A stretch of DNA of 64,000 nt from Beijerinckiaceae bacterium (GTDB taxonomy: Bacteria; Pseudomonadota; Alphaproteobacteria; Rhizobiales; Beijerinckiaceae): positions 62,001-126,000 of the forward strand of contig JAPZTO010000003.1 of assembly GCA_027532775.1 (NCBI GenBank). Reading direction: 5' to 3'. Made by a program: the position numbers and the translations under genes. Positions 16,169 to 26,572 of the stretch are shown one piece after another. The notes beneath the pieces were generated by a model. The model saw nothing but the letters and a program-made list of their open reading frames with translations. It did no database searches and had not been told where the DNA came from. Numbering within the stretch: position 1 is the stretch's first letter; the number at the start of each line of letters is the position of its first letter.

Positions 16169-16792
16169 CTAGACGGCAAGACAATCGAGATCCCGCAGGG
16201 CATGCAGGACCGGGATCAAGGGTAGTCCAAGGATGGTGCTGTGGTCACCCTCGATCGCATCGAAGAGATGGATTCCCAGCGCCTCAAGCTGGTAGCCGCC
16301 GACAGTGGTGGTGACGACCGCGCCCATCCTCTCGAGATAGGCATCGAGGAAGACTTCAGAGAAATTCCGCATCCGCAGCGATGCCGAGGCGATGCCGGCC
16401 CATAGCACTGCGTCTCCCCGGCGGAGCACAGCCGCCGAATGAAGGAGATGCTCGGTCCCGCGCAAGGACATCAGCTGGGCTCGGGCATGGGGTCTGTCGG
16501 CAGGCTTCATCAGCAGGCGCCCCTGATGGTCGAGCGTCTGGTCTGCGGCGAGAAGGAGTTCGCCCGGGTGCCGGCGCGCGGCAGCCTCGGCCTTGGCATG
16601 CGCCAGTGCGATGGCGATCTCGGCCGGGGTTTTGCGCGTTTCCAGCAGCGCAGCCGCGATCGCGCCCTCATCGACCGGTGCGCGCACGACCTCGAGCGGG
16701 ATTCCCGCCGCTTCCAGCATCTGCCGCCGCGTGGCCGAGCCGGAGGCAAGCAGCAGCGGCTGTCCGGCCTTCCAGAAAGACTGCCCGCTCAT
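16169..16792 (-). CDS. maf: Maf-family nucleoside triphosphate pyrophosphatase
   Basis: 207 residues. Maf proteins hydrolyse non-canonical or pyrimidine NTPs. The N-terminal phosphate-binding motif reads [13 protein letters not shown] (14-26), against the more usual S-x-SPRR; the Ser and the double Arg are kept. The catalytic-Asp strand is [21 protein letters not shown] segment near the C-terminus is also family-typical. It may act on dTTP/UTP or on m7GTP; the subtype is not decided here. The ATG overlaps the stop of the PPSR gene (ATGA). Confidence 0.92.
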
Positions 16793-17622
16793 TGCGCGAC
16801 CAGCCCAAGCCGATGGGTGCGGTAGAGATCGATGATCGCGGCAGCGGTTTCCTCGATCGAACGGCGCGTGACGTCGATCACCGGCCAGTTGTTGCGGTCG
16901 AACAGGCGGCGCGCCTGGGCGATTTCCTCGGTCACCGCCTGGCGGTCGATATAGGTCGAGTCCTTTCCATCCGCCGCCAGCGCCAGCATCCGGTTCTGGC
17001 GGATCTGGACTATGCGTTCCGGCGAGGCCACGAGCCCGACGATCAGCGGCTTGGCCAAGGTCTCGATATTGGGCGGCAGCGGCACATTGGGGACCAATGG
17101 CACATTGGCCGTCTTGATGCCGCGATTGGCGAGATAGATGCTGGTCGGCGTCTTCGATGTGCGGCTGACGCCGACGAGGACAACATCGGCCTGATCGAGA
17201 TTCTCGGTCAGTTGCCCGTCATCATGCATCATCGTGAAGTTGAGGGCATCGATGCGGCGAAAATATTCAGCGTTCAGCATATGCTGGGCGCCAGCCTTGG
17301 GTGTCGTCACCACGCCAAGATAGGACTGGAACAGGTTATGGACCGGCTCGAGGACGGAGAGACTAGGGCATCCCTGTTCCTCGCAGGCCCGCTGAAGGCG
17401 GGCAGCCAGTTCCTGGTCGACCATCGTGTACAGGACAATGCCGGGCTCGTTCTCGATATCGAGGATGACCCGGTCGAGCTGTCTTTCATTACGGACAAGC
17501 GGATAGACATGCTCGATCGGCGATATGCCGGCATAGAGGGCCGTTGCCGCGCGGGCGACGGTAATCAGCGTCTCGCCGGTCGAATCCGAGACCAGATGGA
17601 GATGAAAGAAGTTCCGGCCCAT
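16789..17622 (-). CDS. Pyruvate phosphate dikinase / PEP synthase regulatory protein (DUF299, RP001 homologue)
   Basis: 277 residues beginning [18 protein letters not shown]. This is the DUF299 bifunctional Ser/Thr kinase-phosphorylase that inactivates and reactivates PPDK or PEP synthase. The P-loop-like [10 protein letters not shown] runs 151-160. The ATG at 17622 is preferred; an in-frame extension upstream would read through the putative origin. The protein corresponds by order and family to Rickettsia RP001 and the Caulobacter gene on the left side of Cori. That makes it the left flank of the putative replication origin. Confidence 0.93.
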
Positions 17623-18014
17623 GATCCCTGTCCGAAGCCCCGGGGCGATGGTGATATCAACCGGGTTGTCCACATGCCTGTTTACGGCGGGGGACAGACG
17701 AGCGCAATCGAGCCCGGTGCGGGAAGACGTCCGGGGGCCCTGTGGGAAAGCTGAAAATCCATCCCCAGGGAGCGGGTTGGGGATCCCCGCCAACAGGGTC
17801 TGTGAAAATCGGGGAGAAGCCCGGCAGTGCCGGATCATGCTGCTCCAAGGCGCTGGAATCCTTTGGAAAGCCATAGGCCCCAAACGGGCTGTAGCTGGCA
17901 TGTGTCCAGTCTGGTTGACATTCCGCTGTGGATGATCTTGCGAATGCCCTTTGAGGCGTGCCAGAAAGAGAAACAGAGAAGAATCCTCTTCCTTTCTTAT
18001 TTTCGGGAGCCTTC
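17623..18014. other. oriC: Putative chromosomal replication origin (oriC), PPSR-hemE intergenic region
   Basis: A 392-bp gene-free interval with diverging genes on both sides. Three DnaA-box-like 9-mers are visible: TTGTCCACA at 17666-17674 (one mismatch to TTATCCACA), TGTGGATGA at 17927-17935 (one mismatch on the minus strand) and TGTGGGAAA at 17741-17749 (two mismatches). Palindromes occur at 17779-17788 (GGGGATCCCC) and 17821-17833 (CCGGCA-G-TGCCGG). The segment 17961-18004 is purine-rich then pyrimidine-rich and by hand count only about 36% GC, a candidate unwinding element. GANTC methylation sites lie at 17856 and 17981. The RP001-hemE border is the known origin site in Caulobacter. No CtrA TTAA-N7-TTAA site was found. 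Confidence 0.8.
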
Positions 18015-19034
18015 GTGAAGCCCTTCCTCGATGTTCTGGCCGGAAAGGCTGCTGCGCGTCCCCCCATCTGGCTCATGCGTCAAGCCGGTCGCTATCTCCC
18101 GGAATACCGGGCTATCCGTTCCAAAGCGCGAGACTTCCTGCATTTCTGTTACTCGCCGGAAATGGCGATCGAAGCGACGATGCAGCCGATACGCCGGTTC
18201 GGTTTCGATGCTGCGATCATCTTCTCGGATATTCTGGTGATTCCGGATGCACTCGGACAAGGTGTTCGCTTCGCCGAAGGCGAGGGGCCTCGTCTTGAAG
18301 CGATGGAGACGCCGGAGGCCCTCAAGGGTCTTGCGAGTGGCCTTGATGAGGAGAAGCTGGAGCCGGTCTACCAGGCCCTTCGCGGGGTGCGGGCTGCCCT
18401 GCCTTCATCGGTGGTCCTGATCGGCTTCTGTGGCGCTCCCTGGACGCTGGCGACCTATATGATCGGCGGGCGGGGCACACCGGACCAGGCGCCGGCCCGT
18501 CATTTCGCCTATCAGAACCCCGTGGCATTCCAGTCGCTCATGGATCTGCTTGTCGAGGCTTGCACGCGACATCTTTGCCTGCAGGTCGAAGCGGGTGCCG
18601 AGGTGCTGCAGATTTTCGATTCGTGGGCGGGCAACCTGCCGGAGCGGGAATTGTGGCGCTGGAGCGAGGCGCCGATCCGCCGGATCATCGCGGGGGTCAA
18701 GGCGCACCATCCTTCCGTGCCGATCATCGCATTTCCGAGGGGCATTGCCGGGGGTTTCTCGCGATTCGTCTCCGAAACAAAATCCGACGCGATCAGCCTC
18801 GATACTGCCTGCGCGATTTCGGAGATCCGGAAGCAGCTTCCGGCCAGCATGGTAACGCAGGGCAATCTGGATCCGATGGTTTTGATCAACGGCGGCTTTG
18901 CGCTCGACGCTGCAATCGATCATATCCTCGAATCGACTGCGGGCCTGCCGCATGTCTTCAATCTCGGTCATGGCATCCTGCCGCCGACGCCGATCCCGCA
19001 TGTCGAAGCCATGTTGCGCCGGGTGCGGGGCTGA
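18015..19034 (+). CDS. hemE: Uroporphyrinogen decarboxylase HemE
   Basis: 339 residues. It decarboxylates the four acetate chains of uroporphyrinogen III to coproporphyrinogen III in heme synthesis. The signature [18 protein letters not shown] lies near residue 15, and [13 protein letters not shown] in the middle is the second family signature. The GTG at 18015 is preferred because GGGAG lies five bases upstream and the product matches family length. A GTG 57 bases earlier would add a Pro- and Phe-rich leader encoded in the AT-rich origin segment. Its stop overlaps the hemJ start. Confidence 0.95.
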
Positions 19035-22288: not shown

Positions 22289-22304
22289 TGTTTCACGTGA
22301 AACA
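22289..22304. other. parS centromere site 1
   Basis: TGTTTCACGTGAAACA is a perfect 16-bp palindrome matching the bacterial parS consensus that ParB/Spo0J binds to load onto DNA. It fills most of the 29-bp gap between the mnmE stop and the mnmG ATG. It lies about 4.3 kb from the putative origin and 3.4 kb from parB. Confidence 0.96.
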
Positions 22305-24174: not shown

Positions 24175-24827
24175 TGCGGCTGGGTGATCGCGAGGCGGGT
24201 AGTGGGTCCCTGGCAAAGATCGGGATCGATGTTTCACGTGAAACAAGCGCTCGGCTTGATGCCTATGTCGCCATGCTCCGGGAATGGCAGACACGGATCA
24301 ACCTCGTTTCCCCGACGACGCTTGGTTCTCTCTGGGAACGACACATTGTCGATAGCCTTCAACTGCACGCATTGAAGCCAAAGGCTCTTCGCTGGGCGGA
24401 TATGGGCTCGGGTGGTGGATTGCCGGGTATCGTGCTGGCTTGCGCCCTCGCCGGTCAGGACGGCGCGGAGATCCATCTGATTGAGAGCAATTACAAGAAG
24501 GCGGCCTTTCTCAGGGCGGTCTCCGTGGCGCTCGAGCTGCCCACGACGATCCATGCAATGCGGATCGAAGAGGCAGTACCACGTCTCCCAGCCATCGATG
24601 TCTTGACTGCCCGGGCCCTCGCGCCATTGGATGATTTGATCGCCTACGGGAATCTCCTGTTGAAAAGCGGGGCGACAGGTCTCTTTCCCAAGGGCCGTGA
24701 CCATCAGTCCGAATTGACCGATGCCCTACGAAACTGGCAATTCTCTTACCAGCTGCACGACAGCATCACCGAGCCGGCCTCGCGGATCATCGAAATCACC
24801 TTCGATCCGCTGAATCAGTCAGGTTAG
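24171..24827 (+). CDS. rsmG: 16S rRNA (guanine527-N7)-methyltransferase RsmG (GidB)
   Basis: 218 residues. It methylates G527 of 16S rRNA using SAM. The methyltransferase motif I is [15 protein letters not shown], and NLVSPTT precedes it. The N-terminal VSRETS is encoded directly by a parS palindrome, a known peculiarity of alphaproteobacterial gidB. The start is ATG at 24171, overlapping the mnmG stop; a second ATG follows immediately at 24174. parA lies downstream. Confidence 0.95.
24230..24245. other. parS centromere site 2 (inside rsmG)
   Basis: A second perfect TGTTTCACGTGAAACA, identical to the copy at 22289-22304 and 1.94 kb away. It lies within the rsmG coding sequence, where it encodes D-V-S-R-E-T. 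Retention of the exact palindrome in a protein-coding frame argues for selection as a ParB-loading site. Confidence 0.95.
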
Positions 24828-24859
24828 GCCCCGCTCGTGTGGCAACAAGGAGGAATTCC

Positions 24860-25660
24860 ATGAAGCCACGCGTCCTTACAGTAGCCAATCAGAAGGGTGG
24901 CGTCGGGAAAACCACGACAGCCATCAATCTGGGCACTGCGCTTGCCGCCATCGGCGAACGTGTGTTGCTTATCGATCTTGACCCCCAGGGCAATGCGTCT
25001 ACCGGTCTTGGCGTGGATATGCGTGATCGCGACATTTCCGCCTATGACGTTCTGCTCGGCGATGTCTCGCTGTCCGATGCGGCTCGGGCGACCGATGTCC
25101 CTCGCGTCTCGATCGTGCCCGCGACGATGGATCTGCTTGGCGCCGAAATAACTCTGGCTACGCAAAAGGACAGGACCGACCGTCTCAAGAAAGCGATCCA
25201 GTCTCTGTCCAGCATCGGACAATCATCGCCCTTCACGTATATCCTGATTGATTGTCCGCCTTCGCTCAATTTGCTGACGATCAACGCCATGGCAGCGGCC
25301 GATGGCGTTCTTGTACCACTCCAGTGCGAGTTTTTTGCCTTGGAGGGCCTGAGCCAGCTGCTGAAGACCATTGATCAGGTCCGGAGCACCGTGAACCCCG
25401 ATCTCGATATCCATGGCGTTGTCCTGACCATGTTCGATCCGCGCAACAACCTTGCCGGACAGGTCATCCGTGATGTCCGGCAGTATCTCGGCAAGAAGGT
25501 GTTCGAGACCGTGATCCCCCGGAATGTCCGGGTTTCGGAAGCGCCGTCCTATGGCAAGCCGGTCCTGCTTTATGACCTGAAATGCGCCGGCAGCCAGGCC
25601 TATCTCAAGCTGGCCTCCGAGATCATCCAGCGCGAGCGCCTGCTCGCTGCGGCCGAGTGA
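24860..25660 (+). CDS. parA: Chromosome partitioning ATPase ParA
   Basis: 266 residues. It is the Walker-type ATPase that drives segregation of ParB-parS complexes. The deviant Walker A KGGVGKTT is at 12-19, with LLIDLDPQGNAST following and ILIDCPPSLN as Walker B. The product is short and lacks an N-terminal HTH, the chromosomal Soj type. A strong AAGGAGG ribosome-binding site precedes the ATG at 24860. parB starts 13 bases after its stop. Confidence 0.96.
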   Translation: MKPRVLTVANQKGGVGKTTTAINLGTALAAIGERVLLIDLDPQGNASTGLGVDMRDRDISAYDVLLGDVSLSDAARATDVPRVSIVPATMDLLGAEITLATQKDRTDRLKKAIQSLSSIGQSSPFTYILIDCPPSLNLLTINAMAAADGVLVPLQCEFFALEGLSQLLKTIDQVRSTVNPDLDIHGVVLTMFDPRNNLAGQVIRDVRQYLGKKVFETVIPRNVRVSEAPSYGKPVLLYDLKCAGSQAYLKLASEIIQRERLLAAAE

Positions 25661-25672
25661 GGGAGGTCCGCG

Positions 25673-26572
25673 ATGGCAGATGAACAATCCAGGATGCGTC
25701 TCGGTCGTGGTCTGGCAGCTTTGCTGGGTGATGTCGGCAACGAGACGGCTGCAGAGACGCGGAACCGGGCCCAGCGCCGGGTGCCAGTGGAGTTTCTGCG
25801 GCCGAACCCGCTGAATCCGCGACAGACATTCGGCGAGGAGGAGCTTGAAGAACTGGCCGCTTCGATTCGGGAGCGTGACATTATCCAGCCGATCATTGTC
25901 CGGGGCGTTCCCGGGTCAATCGATGCCTTCGAGATCATCGCGGGTGAGCGCCGCTGGCGGGCGGCCCAGCGGGCCGGGCTTCGGGATGTCCCGATCGTGC
26001 TTGTCGAAGCGGATGACAAGCAGGCTCTGGAATTCGCGATTATCGAGAATATCCAGCGGGCGGATCTCAATGCGCTCGACGAGGCACGTGGCTACGAGAA
26101 CCTGATCGCGCAGCATGGTTACACGCAGTCCGATCTCGCCAAGGTGATGGGGAAGAGCCGTTCGCATGTGGCCAACACGCTGCGTTTGGCGCGGCTACCG
26201 GATTCGGTGAAGGAGAAGGTGGCAAGCGGGCAGGTTTCGGCGGGCCATGCCCGTGCCTTGCTGGCTGTTGCAGATCCTGAACTGATGGCCCGGAAGATCA
26301 TCGATCAGGGGCTGACGGTTCGCGATATCGAGCGTGTTGCGCAACGCGAGAACCGTGGTGAGGATGCACCGGCTCCATCGATGAAAAAAGCCAGCGCGAG
26401 GGATGCGGATACGACCGCGCTTGAGCTGCGCCTTGCCGAAATCCTCGGGTTGACCGTGGAGATTGACCATCGTGGCGAAAAGGGCGGGGTGCTGAAAATC
26501 CGGTATCGCACGCTCGAGCAACTCGAATTGCTCAGCCATAAGCTCGCAAGCGGCGGCCTACCGGCGGCGTGA
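25673..26572 (+). CDS. parB: Chromosome partitioning protein ParB (CTPase, parS-binding)
   Basis: 299 residues. It binds parS, clamps and spreads on DNA in a CTP-dependent manner. The ParB/Srx CTP-binding domain includes NPRQTF, GERRWRAAQRAGL (91-103) and ENIQRADLNALDEA. The HTH is TQSDLAKVMGKSRSHVANTL. A C-terminal dimerisation domain follows an Ala/Lys-rich linker. The basic N-terminus RLGRGLAALLGD is the ParA-activating motif. It pairs with parA and the two parS sites just upstream. Its 3' end overlaps convergent holA by 15 bases. Confidence 0.96.
   Translation: MADEQSRMRLGRGLAALLGDVGNETAAETRNRAQRRVPVEFLRPNPLNPRQTFGEEELEELAASIRERDIIQPIIVRGVPGSIDAFEIIAGERRWRAAQRAGLRDVPIVLVEADDKQALEFAIIENIQRADLNALDEARGYENLIAQHGYTQSDLAKVMGKSRSHVANTLRLARLPDSVKEKVASGQVSAGHARALLAVADPELMARKIIDQGLTVRDIERVAQRENRGEDAPAPSMKKASARDADTTALELRLAEILGLTVEIDHRGEKGGVLKIRYRTLEQLELLSHKLASGGLPAA

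What the first reader, a model, noticed from the sequence alone, without database searches (positions are those of the whole stretch)
17623..18014. Likely chromosomal replication origin at the PPSR(RP001)-hemE border
The interval is gene-free (392 bp) and the genes point outward on both sides. It has three DnaA-box-like 9-mers, two palindromes, two GANTC sites and a 44-bp segment of about 36% GC by hand count. Gene order on both sides (PPSR-maf-aroE-coaE-dnaQ-secB to the left; hemE-hemJ-rho-mnmE-mnmG-rsmG-parA-parB to the right) matches the Caulobacter Cori neighbourhood. No CtrA TTAA-N7-TTAA site was found, unlike Cori, so initiation control may differ. The overlap of the low-GC segment with the possible longer 5' end of hemE is also notable.
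Basis: partly seen in the sequence, partly recalled or inferred. Interest (0 to 1): 0.85.

Follow-up and report, generated by a model that had tools for sequence, protein, structure and literature searches.

The report
Chromosome replication start site, Hyphomicrobiales bacterium
This 392-base gap is very probably the point where the bacterium starts copying its chromosome, an ordinary site for its class, and in related bacteria its likely unwinding stretch nearly always carries a DNA-methylation mark whose role can be tested.

Summary
In detail: 17623-18014 is a gene-free 392-bp gap between divergent PPSR and hemE, with the reported boxes, AT-rich tract, GANTC sites and gene order. The reading as chromosomal oriC is well supported. 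Of 60 related gaps, 49 measure 336-447 bp. DnaA boxes (at most one mismatch) occur in 45 of 60, against 93 of 1570 flanking windows. The genome's only two parS sites (up to one mismatch) lie 4.3 and 6.2 kb away. Fourfold-site AT skew changes sign near here.

Contigs are unordered, so the switch point is unknown.

One addition from the comparison: a GANTC (CcrM methylation) site lies in the hemE-proximal 110 bp of 57 of 61 gaps, in 55 within the lowest-GC segment. It remains where hemE has left (16 of 18) and is not enriched in 27 loci drawn class-wide (13, 11.1 expected). CtrA-type sites are absent here but exact in 17 of 61. The origin is a known kind; the methylation-site pattern is the testable part. 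DnaA binding and origin activity were not tested.

The parts
17623..18014 (.). predicted chromosomal origin of replication (oriC), whole PPSR-hemE gap
17656..17674 (+). block ending in DnaA box TTGTCCACA (17666-17674), PPSR side; its CACA is kept in all 13 aligned rows
   Evidence: box; alignment of the window and 12 relatives:
17741..17749 (-). weak DnaA box TTTCCCACA (two mismatches)
17762..17783 (.). inverted pair of W-box-like TCCCCA hexamers (17762-17767 +, 17778-17783 -), candidate low-affinity DnaA sites; two against 0.62 expected, weak
   Evidence: W-box definition from PMC4285127 passages
17856..17860 (.). GANTC (GAATC), central; unremarkable by count
17927..17935 (-). DnaA box TCATCCACA, hemE side; TGTGG core (plus strand) in 12 of 13 aligned rows
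17959..18002 (.). AT-rich purine/pyrimidine tract, likely duplex unwinding element (GC 0.364)
17962..17976 (+). run of five NAN triplets (DnaA-trio-like) within the tract
17981..17985 (.). GANTC (CcrM methylation site) inside the tract; a GANTC lies in the hemE-proximal 110 bp in 57 of 61 gaps
16789..17622 (-). PPSR (pyruvate, phosphate dikinase / PEP synthase regulator; COG1806, RP001), left neighbour
18015..19034 (+). hemE, right neighbour
22289..22304 (.). parS TGTTTCACGTGAAACA, exact, at the mnmE/mnmG junction
24230..24245 (.). second exact parS, within rsmG
24839..26572 (+). parA (24839-25660) and parB (25673-26572)

Best explanation
The gap is the DnaA-dependent chromosomal origin, of the alphaproteobacterial type that lies between PPSR (COG1806) and hemE. 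Proposed working: DnaA binds the conserved boxes at both ends and weaker sites between; the oligomer opens the AT-rich tract beside hemE (DnaA-trio-like triplets on the plus strand); helicase is loaded there and forks leave both ways; ParB on the two nearby parS sites moves the sister origins apart. Shown here: conservation of the gap, boxes, tract and GANTC, and the nearby parS. Inferred: DnaA binding, the melting site, bidirectional firing. CtrA has no site of its known full type here. The CcrM site inside the tract may report or gate whether the origin has just been copied; that step is a hypothesis.
For: Divergent PPSR-hemE in 60 of the 80 relatives kept (of 109 found), 49 of 60 gaps 336-447 bp. 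At least one box with at most one mismatch in 45 of 60, two or more in 19 of 60; flanking windows of the same length 93 and 2 of 1570; shuffles 91 and 3 of 1200. Class-wide draw, one genome per family: 27 of the 29 loci examined have the divergent pair (the other two show no hemE in the stretch held), and 21 of 27 have a box against 2.1 expected. Two parS in the 3.8-Mb genome at up to one mismatch, both exact, 4.3 and 6.2 kb away; reversed-pattern control 0. Fourfold AT skew, gene strand removed: +0.077 in the 79.8 kb left of the gap, against at most +0.048 in 74 other (overlapping) windows of that size on the contig; in close relative G166 +0.09 left, -0.08 and -0.04 right. Out-of-sample 8-mer polarity: +0.02 to +0.11 in four 20-kb windows left, +0.12 to +0.35 in eleven right.
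Against: GC skew does not change sign at the gap: 88 of 90 10-kb bins of the contig are positive and the cumulative minimum is at about 9 kb, not 79.8 kb. Fourfold GC skew is positive on both sides (+0.051 left, +0.079 right; its best change point is 320 kb), and in G166 too (+0.086 left, +0.058 and +0.044 right). The best AT change point is 70 kb, not 79.8 kb. With 5-, 6- and 7-mers the polarity step is blurred: windows on the two sides overlap. No IHF consensus, no CtrA site, no exact TTATCCACA. No box of at most two mismatches pointing at, and within 16 bp of, the triplet run in this species, so the published BUS rule is not met here (rule read). 15 of 60 gaps have no box with at most one mismatch.
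Confidence: 0.93

Rival explanations
1. The active origin has moved left of the window; the PPSR-hemE gap is a fossil kept for its promoters.
For: GC skew stays positive left of the gap and the cumulative minimum is near the contig's left end; fourfold GC skew does not flip.
Against: Box cores and tract remain conserved in close relatives; the only parS pair is here; AT skew and 8-mer polarity change near here. The only pair of boxes with at most one mismatch within 400 bp in the 2.25 Mb scanned is this one, though about 1.5 are expected by chance.
Confidence: 0.05
2. The gap is only a divergent promoter region for PPSR and hemE.
For: It lies between divergent genes, which need promoters.
Against: In 20 loci where hemE is not beside PPSR, 14 still have a box with at most one mismatch within 900 bp of PPSR, and an AT-rich tract stays about 310-340 bp from PPSR in most of the 18 long enough to examine; boxes are far above flanking rates.
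Confidence: 0.02
3. (About the GANTC site only, not exclusive of oriC.) The conserved GANTC serves an origin-embedded promoter read by GcrA/CcrM, not replication control.
For: GANTC is reported to be over-represented in alphaproteobacterial intergenic regions and GcrA to read methylated GANTC in promoters (PMC7987155, passages); the genome has a GcrA match. CcrM depletion did not visibly change ori1 in Agrobacterium (PMC11514494, passages) and a Caulobacter ccrM deletion had a normal DNA-content profile in minimal medium (PMC3973325, passages).
Against: Only 10 of 95 tail GANTC fit YGAKTCK on either strand. The site persists where hemE has gone (16 of 18). Upstream of rho only 11 of 55 have one.
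Confidence: 0.5

Closest known systems
Caulobacter crescentus Cori
   Same: between hemE and the COG1806 gene, DnaA boxes, 40-bp AT-rich region (PMC1914354 passages)
   Different: no CtrA sites and no IHF consensus here; boxes are TTGTCCACA and TCATCCACA, not the G-box TGATCCACA (PMC4285127 passages). Cori's sequence itself was not compared.
Sinorhizobium meliloti chromosomal origin (Sibley 2006, not read; seen only in the reference list of PMC2877005)
   Same: same order (recalled); no CtrA motifs, not bound by CtrA (PMC4433202 passages)
   Different: not compared letter for letter
Bacterial BUS (DnaA box, spacer, DnaA-trios; PMC8287927, section 13 and passages)
   Same: NAN runs of five or more on the strand toward hemE in 35 of 61 gaps, against 10 of 61 on the other strand
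   Different: no box within 16 bp in the window species
E. coli oriC with Dam sites and SeqA (PMC10073500 passages)
   Same: methylation sites at the origin
   Different: different methylase and motif; no SeqA counterpart was sought

Membership tests
hemE/COG1806-type alphaproteobacterial oriC | lies between divergent COG1806 (PPSR) and hemE | tested here: met
hemE/COG1806-type alphaproteobacterial oriC | intergenic region over 300 bp with DnaA boxes | tested here: met
   392 bp
hemE/COG1806-type alphaproteobacterial oriC | AT content above background; AT-rich tract | tested here: met
   GC 0.587 against 0.647 for the window; tract 0.364
hemE/COG1806-type alphaproteobacterial oriC | GC-skew shift | tested here: not met
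   AT skew does shift; PMC1914354 passages say not all elements need be present
hemE/COG1806-type alphaproteobacterial oriC | no other region as rich in boxes | tested here: inconclusive
   one pair in 2.25 of 3.80 Mb, but about 1.5 expected by chance
hemE/COG1806-type alphaproteobacterial oriC | DnaA binding and autonomous replication | not testable with these tools
   needs experiment
CtrA-silenced origin (Cori) | TTAA-N7-TTAA sites | tested here: not met
   no TTAA in the interval, no site at up to two mismatches
CtrA-silenced origin (Cori) | IHF site | tested here: not met
   WATCAANNNNTTR (recalled consensus) absent; present in 2 of 61 gaps
BUS unwinding module | DnaA box (up to 2 mismatches) within 16 bp of at least three NAN triplets | tested here: not met
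   five triplets at 17962-17976 but no such box; a tandem box of up to 4 mismatches was not searched

The most novel reading that the evidence does not exclude
In Hyphomicrobiales the unwinding tract of the chromosomal origin carries a selected CcrM (GANTC) site whose hemimethylated state after passage of the fork delays reopening. This would be a methylation eclipse at the DUE itself, in a group where CcrM is reported essential and CtrA sites at the origin are patchy.
Probability: 0.2. Interest if true: 0.7.

Novelty: new member of a known kind. Interest (0 to 1): 0.4.

Why it matters
The origin itself is expected. The GANTC footprint in the unwinding tract (57 of 61 gaps, N free) is present more often than a DnaA box with at most one mismatch (45 of 60), is not enriched in the class-wide draw, and points to a simple test of why CcrM is reported essential in other alphaproteobacteria but only conditionally needed in Caulobacter (PMC6090056, PMC7987155, passages). 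The patchy CtrA-type sites suggest that direct CtrA control of the origin varies inside one order.

Tried and rejected
GC skew as locator: rejected on this contig, with no sign change and unordered contigs. Shorter-word polarity (5- to 7-mers): no clean step. 16S rRNA orientation as a replication-direction marker: no 16S found in the assembly. Single-strand structure of the gap: z -0.30. Palindromes and W-box pair: two TCCCCA against 0.62 expected, weak. Exact BUS in the window species: not met. Uniqueness of the box pair: weaker than it looks, 1.5 pairs expected. GANTC count in the window itself (two): unremarkable; only the comparative position is. Conservative null for GANTC: a third-order Markov model trained on the same tails already gives 43.3 of 61 (sd 3.4, maximum 54 in 200 runs) against 57 observed, so part of the enrichment sits in short words of the AT-rich tract; A-rich patterns AANAA and AANAG are nearly as common (55 and 54 of 61). 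Relatedness: the 61 gaps fall in 42 sequence clusters; in 40 the majority of members carry the site. The 16-of-18 count for loci without hemE has no shuffled control. Of the 60 named loci some are titled only Proteobacteria, Alphaproteobacteria or (L195) Rhodobacteraceae, so 'Hyphomicrobiales' is by titles and similarity, not by a tree.

Rows dropped: L205-L207 left out of the order-wide counts as near-duplicates of L125-L127 by hit identity (not aligned to prove it); L126, L127, L134, L135 and the window also left out of the k-mer; two of 20 loci without hemE too short (L176, L198); L154 counted among the 18 although no rho was found there; of 36 other class-wide genomes with PPSR, loci were held for 29, and 2 of these showed no hemE.

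Full report
What was checked. The interval 17623-18014 is 392 bp with GC 0.587 against 0.647 for the window. Profiles place PPSR (minus strand, start ATG 17622) and hemE (plus strand, start GTG 18015) on its two sides. The longer ORFs that enter the interval extend beyond the profiles, and in 12 relatives the tract before hemE aligns upstream of its start with indels. The listed motifs are present; the two boxes with one mismatch are the only ones in the 64-kb window.

Where it comes from. The window is C13:62001-126000 of a 3.80-Mb, 17-contig genome. The closest named relative by PPSR among the loci fetched is Rhabdaerophilum sp. SD176, PPSR 99.6% and hemE 92.0% identical, so this is a Hyphomicrobiales bacterium of or near that genus. 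Of 199 genomes of its family as grouped by the tool, 4 match the interval at DNA level, the window's own included, all in its genus; six others of the genus listed do not.

Conservation of the gap. Of 80 named loci kept (109 found), 60 have PPSR and hemE divergent; 49 of the 60 gaps measure 336-447 bp, the longest 1123. The alignment of the window and 12 relatives shows CACA of the PPSR-side box in all 13 rows, TGTGG of the hemE-side box in 12 of 13, and a purine-then-pyrimidine AT-rich tract just before hemE. Boxes with at most one mismatch occur in 45 of 60 gaps, two or more in 19 of 60, against 93 and 2 of 1570 flanking windows and 91 and 3 of 1200 shuffles. The most enriched 8-mer in 56 gaps is TGTCCACA, in 20 against 0.5 expected. 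In a class-wide draw of 67 genomes, 37 had PPSR, the window's own included; of 29 loci held for the others, 27 have the divergent pair and 21 of those 27 have a box, against 2.1 expected.

Neighbourhood. The genome has two parS sites at up to one mismatch, both exact, at window 22289 and 24230, next to parA-parB. One dnaA over the family cut-off lies elsewhere, C15:785941.

Skew. It is not met: on C13, 88 of 90 10-kb bins are positive and the cumulative minimum is near 9 kb. Gene-strand-corrected fourfold GC skew is also positive on both sides, with its best change point at 320 kb, and positive on both sides in relative G166. The genes were called with a simple script of mine, not a standard gene finder. 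Fourfold AT skew changes sign near the gap: +0.077 left, at most +0.048 in 74 other overlapping windows of that size; the best change point is 70 kb, t 5.35, and t 4.63 at 79.8 kb. In G166: +0.09 left, -0.08 and -0.04 right. 8-mers chosen on C13 300-897 kb lose much of their polarity left of the gap; 5- to 7-mers show no clean step. I read this as a real boundary with an unusual GC component in the left arm; C15, sampled at 41% and of unknown orientation, looks like the left arm as given. Without contig order the whole-chromosome curve cannot be drawn. A passage of PMC1914354 says GC skew was insufficient in several alphaproteobacteria, and one of PMC3794950 reports no clear pattern in Methylocystis SC2.

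CtrA. The interval has no TTAA at all. Exact TTAA-N7-TTAA occurs in 17 of 61 gaps (9 of 42 clusters), in seven of them at -192 to -195 from hemE with a variable middle, and with up to one mismatch in 27 of 61 against 12% of shuffles. None of L125-L135 or the window has an exact one; L128 alone of L125-L135 has one with one mismatch. In the class-wide set: 2 of 27 exact, 4 of 27 with up to one mismatch against 3.1 expected. The S. meliloti origin is reported to lack the motif and binding (PMC4433202) and Brucella CtrA not to bind its origin (PMC2877005), passages only.

The methylation site. A GANTC lies in the hemE-proximal 110 bp in 57 of 61 gaps (60 relatives plus the window; missing in L133, L135, L146, L194), against 15 of 61 in the PPSR-proximal 110 bp, 31 of 61 in the next 110 bp, 11 of 55 upstream of rho and 22% of flanking windows. 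Of all 256 XYNZW patterns it is the commonest there (next AANAA 55, AANAG 54), and its N is free (T 35, A 27, C 17, G 16). GA-TC at the other spacings from 0 to 5 occurs in 13 to 36 of 61. In 55 of 61 it lies within 4 bp of, or inside, the lowest-GC 44-bp segment of the last 130 bp. Dinucleotide shuffles of the last 100 bp give 23.4 of 61; a harsh third-order null gives 43.3, maximum 54 in 200 runs. By cluster: 40 of 42. In 18 examined loci where PPSR is no longer beside hemE, 16 have a GANTC at the AT-rich tract, mostly about 310-340 bp from PPSR, with rho 0.7-1.25 kb on in 17 of the 18. So the site goes with the origin rather than with hemE. In the class-wide set: 13 of 27 against 11.1 expected; Fisher 57/61 against 13/27 p 4.6e-6, not corrected for relatedness. 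The genome encodes a 392-aa ORF with a DPPY-type methylase motif (my reading of the letters) and a RAMA domain; RAMA rings in 1 of 14 control genomes, Caulobacter; I take it as CcrM. A GcrA match is present too (that control rings in Caulobacter and in Sulfolobus).

What the site may mean. [quoted passage not shown] PMC11514494 found no obvious effect of CcrM depletion on ori1 in Agrobacterium. The last two speak against a strong methylation gate. A passage of PMC6090056 says GANTC methylation seems essential in other alphaproteobacteria. Searches (listings) and the passages read showed no paper that describes a GANTC conserved in the unwinding tract of Hyphomicrobiales origins; the library lacks most subscription papers, and Sibley 2006 and Shaheen 2009 were not read, so it may be in print.

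Mechanism and verdict. Shown: location, conservation, boxes, tract, methyl site, parS. Inferred: DnaA assembly from both ends, melting at 17959-18002, bidirectional forks. The plus strand of the tract carries NAN triplet runs of at least five in 35 of 61 gaps against 10 of 61 on the other strand; the mean longest run is 5.1, against 4.1 for locally shuffled tails. This resembles DnaA-trios, but the window species lacks a box within 16 bp, so the BUS rule is not met in it. I file it as a hemE/COG1806-type oriC without the CtrA layer.

Noticed in passing
whole genome G000: The consensus DnaA box TTATCCACA is absent from all 3.80 Mb (reversed-pattern control 13); 141 of 149 family genomes have at least one, by eye mostly fewer than the control.
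   Followed up: partly
G000 C13 right of the gap, C10, left part of C17 against C15, C8, right part of C17: One set of regions has clear positive GC skew, the other little; fourfold AT and GC skew disagree about the boundary.
   Followed up: partly
L139, L140, L142, L146, L147, L149, L168: An exact CtrA-type site at -192 to -195 from hemE with varying spacer, in origin gaps of other relatives.
   Followed up: partly
Bradyrhizobium loci L171, L173, L178-L180 and others: hemE is no longer next to PPSR; the origin-like gap remains and rho follows about 1.1 kb on.
   Followed up: yes
window 16789-19034: PPSR is far more conserved than hemE in the same relatives (99.6% against 92.0% in L125, 91.3% against 66.1% in L128).
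   Followed up: no
window 17656-17690: Beside the PPSR-side box, 9 of 13 aligned rows keep TCAACCG before it and 6 of 13 (not the window) CTGTTGTCAAG after it; binder unknown.
   Followed up: no
G000: No 16S rRNA gene was found in the assembly (the same search rang in 9 of 14 control genomes).
   Followed up: no
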